From Amycolatopsis sp. GM8 (lineage in GTDB: Bacteria; Actinomycetota; Actinomycetes; Mycobacteriales; Pseudonocardiaceae): a stretch of 64,000 bases of DNA. The stretch is from positions 680,936 through 744,935 of the forward strand of contig NZ_JAJKFK010000004.1 of the NCBI RefSeq assembly GCF_021653975.1, written 5' to 3'. Shown one piece after another: positions 3,295 through 52,665 of this stretch (positions are counted from its first letter, which is position 1; each line of letters starts with the position of its first letter). Below the pieces are notes generated by a model. The model saw only the letters and a program-made list of their open reading frames with translations, did no database searches and was not told where the DNA came from. Both the position numbers and the translations under genes were made by a program.

Positions 3295-6439
<3,145 letters not shown>

Positions 6440-6868
6440 GTGCAGAACTCGCGGTCCTGAGTGTCGGACTCGCCCTTCACCCGGCGGGTCCGGCACTCCC
6501 GACCCCGAGTCCGACGTTCGGGGCGGCCCCCCCCCCCGCCCCCCCCGCCCCCCCCCACACTCCCGACCCCGAGTCCGACGTTCGTGGCGCCGAGTCCGAC
6601 GTTCGTGGCGCCGAGTCCGACGTTCGTGGCGCCGAGTCCGACGTTCGTGGTGGACGGTGTCGGCTCACAGGCCCGGCTCGTGGCGGGGCCGGACCTCGTT
6701 GCGCACCGGGGGCGGGTGTAACGGCCGCACCCTTTGGGGCCGTGGCGTCGAACTCATCGTCTCCGATGCACGATTCGCCGTCCTGAGTGTCGGACTCGCG
6801 CGCGTGACTGTCGGACTCGCCGGGGTGCGCGCGAGTCCGACACTGCAGACGGCGAGTTCGACGGTCCG
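6440..6868. repeat. Intergenic array of 21-bp units, family A (GAGTCCGAC type), between convergent genes
   Basis: The 429-nt gap between mdh and the M3 peptidase holds no gene. Four head-to-tail 21-bp units starting GAGTCCGACGTTCGTGG run at 6571-6591, 6592-6612, 6613-6633 and 6634-6654; the first three are identical. Diverged copies in both orientations lie on each side: GTCGGACTCG-type near 6463, 6790 and 6811, and GAGTCCGAC-type near 6508 and 6832. The block is therefore rich in inverted as well as direct repeats. Read as protein it gives the heptad ESDVRGA, but no gene start or codon context supports translation. The same family recurs at 48579-48662 and 52503-52665. Confidence 0.85.
6527..6556. 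repeat. Three C-tracts (11, 8 and 9 C) separated by single G
   Basis: Within the repeat region are homopolymer runs of C at 6527-6537, 6539-6546 and 6548-6556, broken only by single G bases. The minus strand is correspondingly G-rich. Such tracts are prone to slippage and to sequencing error, and they could form four-stranded G or C structures. No gene uses this stretch. Confidence 0.7.
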
Positions 6869-12865: not shown

Positions 12866-12899
12866 CGCTCGCGCCCCACACACACCCCACGCGCCGCAG

Positions 12900-13025
12900 G
12901 CCAACTCGGGCGCGCCACGGGCAAACTCACCCGCGCAGCGGGCAAACTCACCGACACAGCGGGCAAACACACCGACGCAGCCAGCAAACACGCCCGCGCG
13001 ACAAGCAAACACGCCGATCACCTGG
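12900..13025. repeat. Array of six 21-bp units, family B (GCAAACTC type)
   Basis: After the DUF5703 gene, six consecutive 21-bp units begin with GCCAACTC, GCAAACTC, GCAAACTC, GCAAACAC, GCAAACAC and GCAAACAC, at 12900, 12921, 12942, 12963, 12984 and 13005. Each later half is a variable GC-rich segment. These are the reverse orientation of the units at 26556-26764. The array begins 34 nt after one gene's stop and lies between convergent genes. No reading frame with a start covers it. Confidence 0.82.
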
Positions 13026-13112
13026 CACCCGGCAGCCGAAACCCGGCAACGAAACGTAACCACCAGAGCAGCCCACCCACCTCCCCCCAACCCCGATAGA
13101 AAGCCGCCCTAG

Positions 13113-20704: not shown

Positions 20705-20718
20705 CCGGACAACGGCAG

Positions 20719-20754
20719 AGGGCCCCGGACTTCCCCGACGAAGTCCGGGGCCCT
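20719..20754. terminator. Bidirectional terminator hairpin
   Basis: A perfect 15-bp stem (AGGGCCCCGGACTTC at 20719-20733 and its complement at 20740-20754) with a 6-nt loop separates the convergent hsp20 and nitroreductase genes. It overlaps the first base of the latter's stop codon. No U-tract follows, which is common in high-GC actinobacteria. Confidence 0.8.
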
Positions 20755-26540: not shown

Positions 26541-26555
26541 GCGTGTCCGCCCGGC

Positions 26556-26764
26556 GTGTTGGCCCGCCGCGTCGGTGAGTTTGCTTGCTGCGTCGGCGTG
26601 TTGGCCCGCCACGTCGGCGACTTGGCCCGCCACGCCGGCGAGTTGGCCGCCCACGCCGGCGAGTTGGCTCGCCACGTCGGCGTGTTGCCCGCCACGTCGG
26701 CGAGTTGGCCTCCGACGTCGGCGTGTTGGCCCGCCGCGCCGGTGAGTTGGCCGCGGGCGGCGCC
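26556..26764. repeat. Array of ten ~21-bp units, family B (GAGTTGGC/GTGTTGGC type), between convergent genes
   Basis: Ten consecutive units start with GTGTTGGC, GAGTTTGC or GAGTTGGC and end in variants of CGTCGGC. They begin at 26556, 26577, 26598, 26619, 26640, 26661, 26682 (20 nt), 26702, 26723 and 26744. The whole gap between the E1-like gene (ends 26540) and the convergent STAND gene (ends 26774) is filled by it. An inverted partial unit (AACTCGGC) closes it. It is the same family as 12900-13025, in the other orientation. Confidence 0.85.
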
Positions 26765-26773
26765 AACTCGGCG

Positions 26774-47910: not shown

Positions 47911-48571
47911 TAGGGCGGCAACAACAGTGGACTCCCCCGTTCGAGGGCAGCTCTCGAACCCCGGTGCCCAGCAAGGCATCCCGCATTACCGGCGCAACCT
48001 CAACGCGATGACGCTGAAGCTGCTCGTCGCGGGCGGGTTCGGCGTCGGCAAGACGACGATGGTCGGCTCGGTCAGCGAGGTGCCCCCGCTGCACACCGAG
48101 GAAGCGCTGACCGCGGCGTCCGCGAGCGTCGACGACCTGACCGGCGTGGAGAAGAAGACGACCACGACGGTCGCGCTCGACTTCGGGCGCATCACGATCA
48201 ACCCCGAGCTGATCCTGTACCTGTTCGGCACGCCGGGGCAGGACCGGTTCTGGTTCATGTGGGACGAGCTCGCCGTCGGCGCGCTGGGCGCGGTGATCCT
48301 CGCCGACACGCGCCGGCTGGAGAGCTGCTTCCCGGCGGTGGACTTCTTCGAGCGGCGCGGCGTGCCGTTCGTGGTCGGGGTGAACTGCTTCGACGACGCG
48401 TACCGCTACGGCACCGAAGAGGTCCGGGACGCCCTGGAACTCGACCGGGGCATCCCGGTGCTGCTGTGCGACGCGCGCGAGAAGGAGTCGACCAAGCAGG
48501 TCCTGATCACCCTCATCGAACACGTGATGGGCACCAAGAAAACCCTGACCTCCGCCTACCGCCTCTCCTGA
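47891..48571 (+). CDS. cvnD: Conservon small GTPase CvnD
   Basis: 226 residues. The P-loop GGFGVGKTT is at ~48-56. The switch region is SASVDDLTGVEKKTTTTVALDFG, and G3 is LFGTPGQDRFWFMWDE (GTPGQ for DTPGQ). G4 is the altered VNCFD in place of NKxD, as is usual for CvnD. The N-terminal ~40 residues are a polar extension. It cycles between GDP and GTP in complex with CvnB. The ATG at 47891 lies inside cvnC. The gene ends 8 nt before a 21-bp repeat array shared with a convergent hyuB gene. Confidence 0.94.
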   Translation: MASADSDRAATTVDSPVRGQLSNPGAQQGIPHYRRNLNAMTLKLLVAGGFGVGKTTMVGSVSEVPPLHTEEALTAASASVDDLTGVEKKTTTTVALDFGRITINPELILYLFGTPGQDRFWFMWDELAVGALGAVILADTRRLESCFPAVDFFERRGVPFVVGVNCFDDAYRYGTEEVRDALELDRGIPVLLCDAREKESTKQVLITLIEHVMGTKKTLTSAYRLS

Positions 48572-48578
48572 CCCCCGC

Positions 48579-48662
48579 GAGTCCGACCCTCAGGACGCCG
48601 AGTCCGACACTCGCGACAGCGAGTCCGACGCTCAGGACGGCGAGTCCGACGCTCGGCTACGA
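48579..48662. repeat. Array of four 21-bp units, family A, between convergent genes
   Basis: Units starting GAGTCCGAC lie at 48579, 48600, 48621 and 48642, each 21 bp, with tails such as CCTCAGGACGCC and GCTCAGGACGGC. The array fills the 85-nt gap between cvnD and the convergent hyuB gene, and its last unit overlaps the hyuB stop codon at 48657-48659. It is the same family as in 6440-6868. Confidence 0.85.
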
Positions 48663-52452: not shown

Positions 52453-52502
52453 CGCACGCGGCGCGCGACTATGCGCCGCGCACGGCGCACCTCCACGACG
52501 GC

Positions 52503-52665
52503 GAGTCCGACGTTCCAGACGCCGAGTTCGACGTTCAGGACGCTGACTTCGACACTGGCGATGGCCGGACGGTGGCCCGCCGTCGAACTCGCCGTCGTGG
52601 GCGTCGAACTCGGCGTCGCGAGCGTCGGACTCGGCGTCGTGGGGGTCGGACTCGCGGTGGGGGTC
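52503..52665. repeat. Inverted array of seven 21-bp units, family A (three forward, four reverse)
   Basis: Forward units begin GAGTCCGAC, GAGTTCGAC and GACTTCGAC at 52503, 52524 and 52545. After a 16-nt centre, four reverse units (GTCGAACTCG or GTCGGACTCG) begin at 52582, 52603, 52624 and 52645. The opposite halves can pair into a long hairpin. The last unit overlaps the gntR stop codon. Unlike the other arrays it sits between genes on the same strand, where it could insulate the gntR operon from hyuAB. Confidence 0.85.

What the first reader, a model, noticed from the sequence alone, without database searches (positions are those of the whole stretch)
6440..6868. Arrays of 21-bp units fill convergent gene junctions
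Seen directly: four of the five convergent junctions with a real gap hold tandem 21-bp arrays (6440-6868, 12900-13025, 26556-26764, 48579-48662). The fifth (20704/20754) has an ordinary hairpin. Three further convergent pairs overlap or have a 4-nt gap. A fifth array (52503-52665) lies between co-directional genes. Twenty-one bp is exactly two helical turns, so each unit shows the same face. They may act as terminators, insulators, or binding sites for a nucleoid protein. I know of no named element class that fits.
Basis: partly seen in the sequence, partly recalled or inferred. Interest (0 to 1): 0.85.

Follow-up and report, generated by a model that had tools for sequence, protein, structure and literature searches.

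The report
Phased 21-bp arrays at gene ends
This bacterium carries many short tandem arrays of a 21-base unit placed right where genes end, mostly between genes that face each other, and they look more like rows of protein-docking sites than like the usual hairpin stop signals.

Summary
The arrays are real and the convergent-gap bias holds beyond the window. In 1.26 Mb of the host genome, period-21 arrays occur in 12 of 73 convergent gaps of 40 bp or more, 4 of 334 co-directional (one not of the family) and 2 of 178 divergent. All 13 co-directional arrays placed lie on the upstream gene's 3' side, so "gene 3' ends" is the better description. Two unit families share the register (A: GAGTYCGAC core; B: GWGTTKGCC core). 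Cores differ between species; the 21-bp step stays. Ten one-way arrays show little RNA structure. Where runs invert, join length is mostly fixed or shifts by about 10 bp while its sequence varies. Units within an array are no more alike than between arrays, and the core is kept far better than the spacer. This fits DNA sites read by a sequence-specific protein. My preferred mechanism, a protein-bound two-way block to RNA polymerase, is inferred; no binder or RNA-end data exist here. Main rival: a REP/BIME-like dispersed repeat tolerated at 3' ends.

The parts
6440..6526 (-). family A units read on the - strand (e.g. GTCGGACTC at 6463-6471) followed by one + core at 6507; first core 2 bp after the stop of the malate/lactate dehydrogenase-like gene
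6527..6556 (.). C-rich tract (30 bp) just before the GAGT end of the next A run
6569..6650 (+). 3.9 identical family A units CCGAGTCCGACGTTCGTGGCG (recent local expansion)
   Evidence: 100% matches
6775..6868 (.). A- units then A+ units with a 14-bp join; last core ends 6 bp from the stop of the M3 peptidase gene
12890..13029 (-). family B array, about 6 units; 33 bp after the left stop, over 500 bp from the right stop
26552..26773 (+). family B array, about 10 units, then one inverted unit with a 10-bp join (GAGTTGGC-N10-GCCAACTC, 26744-26769)
48577..48656 (+). family A array, 3.7 units, nearly fills the 85-bp convergent gap; no stem above shuffles
52492..52663 (.). A+ units then A- units (inverted) between co-directional genes; last core 10 bp from the 3' end (52664) of the upstream GntR/FCD regulator gene
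20705..20753 (.). comparison: convergent gap without array, ordinary hairpin

Best explanation
The arrays are rows of DNA-binding sites, one per 21 bp (two helical turns), for a sequence-specific protein not yet identified. They sit just after stop codons at the ends of transcription units. The protein, bound cooperatively on one face of the DNA, would block or release RNA polymerase arriving from either side, so that an array works as a bidirectional, hairpin-free terminator or insulator between convergent genes. Shown: the arrays, their 3'-end location, the core conservation, the mostly fixed or roughly 10-bp-stepped joins of inverted runs, the weak RNA structure of one-way arrays, and species-specific unit cores. 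Inferred: the protein, its cooperativity, and the termination activity.
For: Location: 12/73 convergent gaps of 40 bp or more against 4/334 co-directional and 2/178 divergent (Fisher p 6e-8; outside the window 8/68 against 5/496, p 2e-5). Three array-bearing relatives pooled: 6/50, 2/167, 0/90 (G198, G092, G203). Thirteen of 13 placed co-directional arrays are on the upstream gene's 3' side. In 8 of 12 convergent gaps the outer cores lie within 25 bp of both stops. Hairpins elsewhere: 23 of 28 convergent gaps of 40-93 bp without an array hold stems of 13 or more pairs (counted), whereas the one-way arrays at 48572 and L042 have best stems of 6 pairs against 8 in shuffles (9 against 9.4 for 48572 read on the other strand). 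At 6439/6869, 9 of 10 relatives with a convergent neighbour have stems of 13 or more pairs, six above every shuffle; at 48571/48657 G204 has a 20-pair hairpin where G000 has an array. DNA level: units occur in either orientation relative to transcription (read); RNA fold z lies between -2.6 and +2.2 on both strands for ten one-way arrays. Phasing: A(-+) joins in G000 are 13-15 bp in 13 of 16 places and 22-25 in 3; B(-+) joins in G198, G200 and G187 are 4-5 in 11 of 36 places, 11-15 in 20, 23-25 in 4 and 9 in 1; B(+-) joins in G000 have total length 25-26 in 28 of 31 places (18 as matched, 10 with a diverged inner unit read by eye). Site-like conservation: core identity 0.88 within and 0.85 between arrays, spacer 0.60 and 0.58 (A); 0.80/0.79 and 0.60/0.55 (B). 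Same-strand spacing is 21 in 69 of 79 neighbour pairs, 20 in 1.
Against: No binding protein was found and no expression data were available. Distribution is patchy: G202, a close relative (95%, 89% and 82% identical in three proteins), has arrays in 0/7 convergent gaps of a 100-kb sample and no family A or B matches, so arrays are dispensable over short evolutionary time. The last 400 kb sampled had arrays in 0/25 convergent gaps (less). Two family arrays lie in gaps called divergent (L043, L266). Longer convergent gaps often have neither array nor hairpin: only 2 of 14 array-free gaps of 102-277 bp have stems of 13 or more pairs, and one one-way array (L041 8473) lies in a gap with a 13-pair stem, so 'array or hairpin' is not a strict rule. 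The ten 14-bp A joins share a G-left, C-right trend (loop identity 0.55 against 0.38 shuffled), and several 4-bp G198 joins are identical, so part of the fixed spacing may be common descent. Some joins do not fit: B(-+) in G000 at 10 (one place), B(+-) in G000 at 38, 44, 45, a looser (-+) pair 38 apart and a (+-) pair 121 apart, A(+-) in G203 at 45 and 58. The unit set was chosen by a 13/21 match to a consensus, which narrows the within/between comparison. In 6440-6868 part of the older 3' region appears (by eye) to survive between two array blocks.
Confidence: 0.4

Rival explanations
1. A REP/BIME-like dispersed repeat without its own job: it spreads or is exchanged within the genome and survives only where it breaks nothing, that is just after genes, most of all between convergent genes.
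For: REP repeats are described as lying mainly between convergent and unidirectional genes, downstream of coding regions, often in pairs of opposite orientation (PMC3733652, passages). Unit types differ between species and the close relative G202 has none. G200 and G203 hold near-identical copies of a 34-bp inverted B element at 12 and 10 places, which shows recent dispersal (counted). Local expansion occurs (6569-6650).
Against: Ten one-way arrays fold little or no better than shuffles, so the unit is not a stem-loop. The strict 21-bp step and the stepped joins are not explained by avoidance of damage. Core and spacer diverge very unequally. At two junctions hairpins stand in relatives where arrays stand here. 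A carrier transposase was not looked for.
Confidence: 0.3
2. Topological sites: the arrays recruit or anchor gyrase, another topoisomerase or a nucleoid protein where positive supercoils pile up between convergent genes.
For: Positive supercoiling is enriched between convergent genes in E. coli and yeast (PMC8360656, passages). E. coli gyrase sites are enriched downstream of highly transcribed operons and in BIME-2 repeats (PMC6379681, passages). Location and helical phasing fit.
Against: The gyrase motif has a phased 10-bp G/C variation, whereas the arrays show no A/T autocorrelation at lag 10 or 11 (-0.06) and 0.52 at lag 21 (17 segments). Gyrase would not be expected to need a species-specific 9-bp core (inference).
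Confidence: 0.17
3. RNA-level terminators: the transcript of an array folds into hairpins, or is a C-rich Rho loading site.
For: Six of eight stretches with inverted runs fold strongly (z -3 to -12: window 52497, 6440 and 6775 parts, L045, L058, L063). One strand of B arrays is C/A-rich and weakly folded (read by eye).
Against: Ten one-way arrays have z between -2.6 and +2.2, and two stretches with inverted runs (window 26541-26773, L056) reach only about -2. Unit orientation relative to the transcript is mixed: A+ in sense at L012, L015, L029, L075 and A- in sense at L001, L071 (read). No U-tracts seen by eye. RNA loops would not need steps of about 10 bp (inference).
Confidence: 0.1

Closest known systems
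REP / BIME repeats (repetitive extragenic palindromes; bacterial interspersed mosaic elements)
   Same: Interspersed, intergenic, downstream of genes and between convergent genes, often in opposite orientations (PMC3733652 passages); families differ between species.
   Different: Here the unit is a 21-mer without a stem, in head-to-tail arrays with a strict period and stepped inverted joins; no GTAG/CGTC-tagged stem-loop was seen.
TTF-I / Sal-box terminators of eukaryotic RNA polymerase I
   Same: Works-like comparison only: a termination protein bound to specific sites beside a gene; the mouse site is an 18-bp motif (PMC11358750 passages).
   Different: Eukaryotic, at rRNA genes, Myb-domain protein, binding and termination described as orientation-dependent (polar), whereas two-way action is proposed here; no relative was sought.
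Intrinsic hairpin terminators between convergent genes
   Same: Same position; at two junctions arrays and hairpins replace one another between species.
   Different: Most one-way arrays have no stem above shuffles.
VNTR / MIRU minisatellites
   Same: Tandem repeats, some with identical neighbouring units.
   Different: The same unit family recurs all over the genome, and units within an array are no more alike than between arrays. MIRU recalled; seen only in a search listing.

Membership tests
REP/BIME | unit is a 20-40 bp imperfect palindrome | tested here: not met
   Ten one-way arrays: fold z between -2.6 and +2.2 on both strands; best stem 6 pairs at 48572 and L042
REP/BIME | GTAG or CGTC tag at one end of the stem | tested here: not met
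   Read by eye: no tagged stem. CGTC occurs inside many units (e.g. CGTCGG in B) but not beside a stem
REP/BIME | located at 3' ends / between convergent genes | tested here: met
REP/BIME | associated transposase (RAYT, recalled) in the genome | not tested
Intrinsic terminator | G+C-rich hairpin | tested here: not met
   for most one-way arrays (exception: a 13-pair stem in the L041 8473 gap); met where a run is inverted
Rho-dependent terminator (rut) | C-rich, unstructured RNA on the transcribed strand | tested here: inconclusive
   orientation to transcription is mixed (read); strand composition only read, not modelled
Gyrase site (BIME-2-like) | phased 10-bp G/C variation | tested here: not met
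   A/T autocorrelation -0.06 at lags 10 and 11, 0.52 at lag 21, 17 segments
Locally born minisatellite | units within an array more alike than between arrays | tested here: not met
   0.88 against 0.85 (core), 0.60 against 0.58 (spacer) for A; 0.80/0.79, 0.60/0.55 for B; local exception 6569-6650
Known Rfam RNA family | match at gathering score | tested here: not met
   0 matches in the window; other loci not scanned
Protein-bound terminator array (Sal-box-like) | a protein binds the unit and stops RNA polymerase | not testable with these tools
   needs pull-down and RNA 3'-end mapping

The most novel reading that the evidence does not exclude
A bacterial counterpart of protein-roadblock terminator arrays: a species-adapted DNA-binding protein coats helically phased 21-bp sites at gene 3' ends and replaces hairpin termination at a substantial fraction of convergent junctions, with site sequence and protein specificity co-evolving quickly between species of one actinomycete genus.
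Probability: 0.3. Interest if true: 0.87.

Novelty: new variant of a known kind. Interest (0 to 1): 0.68.

Why it matters
How actinomycetes stop convergent transcription is open. A Streptomyces RNA study reports widespread overlapping convergent transcripts, notes that bicyclomycin (a Rho inhibitor; recalled) does not affect colony growth of S. [quoted passage not shown] These arrays give a concrete, testable candidate with natural contrasts: array, hairpin or nothing at the same gene pair in related species.

Tried and rejected
Hairpin-only explanation: rejected for one-way arrays. Local slippage: rejected as the general origin, kept for 6569-6650. Gyrase-type 10-bp G/C phasing: not seen. Rfam: nothing in the window. 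Viral carriage: 0 exact matches in viral contigs for one stringent 30-base family A pattern. The L261 lag-21 hit is a GC-rich non-family repeat. Junction 26540/26774 could not be compared: of the 14 relatives three had a convergent neighbour with a 3-6 bp gap, ten a co-directional neighbour and one none in the locus. Of the 41 stretches found in named genomes I examined 21: 12 are A. alkalitolerans; of the other 9 one is an intergenic array (P. pini L081), seven fall in predicted genes, and L104, called intergenic, and L082 read as acidic coding sequence (by eye). Genus g4 genomes G049 and G003 had 55 and 34 two-mismatch matches but 0 at one mismatch or less, so their unit was not read; the G130 unit (142 matches) was not printed either. 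Test of "either hairpin or array" over all 51 convergent gaps of 40-300 bp: stem excess was lower in array gaps (p 0.04), but the count with stems of 11 or more did not differ (5/9 against 30/42, p 0.44). Paper searches, ten in all: for such arrays, 31 and 48 for REP/BIME, 57 for Term-seq in Amycolatopsis, 58 for Sal boxes; from their listings (open-licence PubMed Central only, several empty because all terms were required) I saw no paper on such arrays, which is weak evidence of absence.

Full report
What is there. The window holds period-21 arrays at the coordinates given. Two unit families share one register: A, GAGTYCGACRYTCNSGACGSC (in 6440-6868, 48577-48656, 52492-52663), and B, GWGTTKGCCCGCYRCGTCGGY (12890-13029, 26552-26773). 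By hand, representative A and B units agree at 12 of 21 positions, and one junction may hold both (L056). Flanking genes have no common theme: malate/lactate dehydrogenase, M3 and M20 peptidases, E1 dehydrogenase, HTH/NB-ARC/TPR protein, ATP-binding protein, hydantoinase/oxoprolinase A and B, GntR/FCD regulator; one of ten had no Pfam match.

Organism. The host is an unnamed 8.16-Mb genome. One same-genus genome, G203, has contigs of the same three lengths (339206, 291829, 212302) as records of Amycolatopsis alkalitolerans, so the genus is Amycolatopsis or what GTDB splits from it.

Is it more than chance? With a home-made gene caller I classified gaps in the window plus 60 stretches of 20 kb taken at regular places without regard to arrays: 1,264,000 bases, 1,198 genes. 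Lag-21 segments (score 16 or more) occur in 12 of 73 convergent, 4 of 334 co-directional and 2 of 178 divergent gaps of at least 40 bp (Fisher p 6e-8). One co-directional case (L261) is not of the family. Without the window: 8/68, 3/324, 2/172. In gaps of 80-150 bp: 6/14 convergent, 0/171 others; of 40-80 bp: 0/27 and 0/129, although a two-unit array below the score lies in one of those 27 (L065 6799). Twenty shuffles gave none. Against the finding: the last 400 kb had 0 of 25 convergent gaps with arrays and only one co-directional (L270) and one divergent (L266) family array, so density varies along the genome.

Where exactly? In co-directional gaps the array is on the side of the upstream gene's stop in all 13 cases placed: window 52492-52663, L058, L270, seven loci brought in by the family A pattern search (read from the printed gaps) and three from G203. 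In one search I used 16 of the 30 overlapping loci, one per array: 9 convergent, 7 co-directional, 0 divergent; two of the 16 (L017, L018) repeat arrays of the sample (L041 8473, L042). In one search, of 12 G203 loci 6 were convergent, 3 co-directional and 3 fell in predicted ORFs (scores 9, 14, 49). In 8 of 12 convergent gaps the outermost cores lie within 25 bp of both stop codons. At 6437-6439 and in L036 the stop TGA itself overlaps a unit.

Hairpin or array. Of 28 array-free convergent gaps of 40-93 bp, 23 hold stems of 13-28 pairs; of 14 longer ones (102-277 bp) only 2 do (counted). One-way arrays: best stems 6 (48572), 6 (L042), 7 (L065), 10 (L037) and 13 (L041 8473) pairs, against 7-10 in shuffles. 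So many longer gaps have neither, and the rule is loose. At 6439/6869, ten of 18 relatives have a convergent neighbour (six with a neighbour of the same length as here, 990-993 bp); nine of the ten show stems of 13 or more pairs, six above all shuffles; in G000 the best stem (13) is an inverted pair of units. At 48571/48657, of seven relatives G204 has a 20-pair hairpin, G203 a related but different array (by eye, GACTC cores about 21-22 bp apart), G202 a 19-bp gap, G026 an overlap, G146 a 573-bp gap with no stem above shuffles, and two have a co-directional neighbour. So the same gene pair may carry an array, a hairpin or nothing.

RNA or DNA? Ten one-way arrays have fold z between -2.6 and +2.2 on both strands; six of eight stretches with inverted runs fold strongly. 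Unit orientation relative to transcription is mixed (read). Where runs invert, the join is constrained. A(-+) in G000: 16 places, gap between the GAGT ends 13-15 in 13 and 22-25 in 3, from an allowed 3-33; none in G203 or G130. B(-+): G198 24 places, 4 (8 places) or 11-15 (16); G200 6 places, 9, 12, 23, 24, 24, 25; G187 6 places, 4, 4, 5, 11, 12, 13; G000 one at 10; a few inner units were read by eye; the reversed control had 0-1 per genome and strand. Pooled over 53 places a period of 10.0-10.5 bp fits best (R 0.71 and 0.70), but the places are not independent: several G198 joins are identical, and the ten 14-bp A loops share a trend (identity 0.55 against 0.38 shuffled). B(+-) in G000: total 25-26 in 28 of 31 places (18 as matched, 10 after reading a diverged inner unit by eye), others 38, 44, 45. 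A(+-) in G000: 35-36 in five, 46 in one, 56 in two places; left out of that list are a pair 121 apart and two G203 matches of 45 and 58. G200 and G203 carry a 34-bp (+-) B element in near-identical copies at 12 and 10 places, which is dispersal, not independent phasing; their other (+-) totals spread over 24-29, 33-35 and 41-48.

Selection on units. From arrays found by periodicity, A core (positions 1-9) identity is 0.88 within and 0.85 between arrays, spacer 0.60 and 0.58; B 0.80/0.79 and 0.60/0.55 (48 A units in 11 arrays, 58 B units in 9 arrays; units kept if they match a seed at 13 of 21). Each unit looks like a separate draw from one profile, as binding sites do; exchange of units between arrays would look alike, but would not give the core/spacer difference. 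Neighbouring same-strand units are 21 apart in 69 of 79 pairs.

Spread. The strict family A pattern matches 8 of 19 genus genomes, family B 7 of 19, G000 included, many with few matches; A is strong in G000 (276), G203 (67) and G130 (53), B in G000 (198), G200 (91) and G203 (45). Printed cores differ by species: GAGTCCGAC in G000, GAGTTCGAC in G203, GAGTCCCAC in most matches of G198 and in G146. Unbiased samples, convergent, co-directional, divergent: G198 3/15, 1/59, 0/27; G092 2/21, 0/55, 0/34; G203 1/14, 1/53, 0/29; G146 0/20, 0/49, 0/35; four other genera 0/37 convergent with one unrelated divergent hit (score 14 or more); G202 0/7, 0/26, 0/17. Among 200 family genomes only G000, G130, G049, G003 and G198 exceed 20 matches to the two-unit pattern with two mismatches. 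Pseudonocardia pini L081 has one three-unit A array filling a 70-bp convergent gap.

Mechanism. Location, two-way use, weak RNA structure, phasing and site-like conservation together favour a protein-bound DNA array; blocking RNA polymerase at gene ends is the simplest task in that place. The binder and the termination are inferred. The REP-like view explains turnover and 3'-end placement but not the step and the core. The topological view explains location, but the 10-bp G/C signature of gyrase is absent.

Literature. REP location (PMC3733652), positive supercoils between convergent genes (PMC8360656), gyrase sites (PMC6379681), Sal box (PMC11358750) and convergent transcripts in Streptomyces (PMC3765725) were seen as passages only. 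The listings of the ten paper searches (named under Tried and rejected) showed no paper on such arrays.

Noticed in passing
window 6527-6556; L065 6799-6848; L042 6352: C-rich or poly-C tracts directly precede the GAGT end of several family A runs, as if marking an array boundary.
   Followed up: partly
G200 and G203 genomes: A 34-bp inverted B element (GAGTTTGCC...GGCCAACTC) recurs almost unchanged at 12 and 10 places, a sign of recent dispersal in those species.
   Followed up: no
L038 10221-10335, L048 13958-14234, L271 10888-11046: Another repeated intergenic sequence (around GTCCTCGCCGGACGGGC) lies in convergent gaps of G000 and G202, unrelated to the 21-bp arrays.
   Followed up: no
G024, G062, G185 (genus g25): The reversed control pattern has 33, 39 and 19 matches, far above most genomes; perhaps another tandem family.
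   Followed up: no
window 6437-6439; L036 16550-16552: The gene's stop codon TGA overlaps an array unit (CTGAGTG...), so the array may have taken over the gene's last codons.
   Followed up: no
L043 4784-4960; L266 17121-17210: Two family arrays in gaps called divergent; open frames exist there (e.g. L043 4623-5399 minus) but none was scored as a gene.
   Followed up: partly
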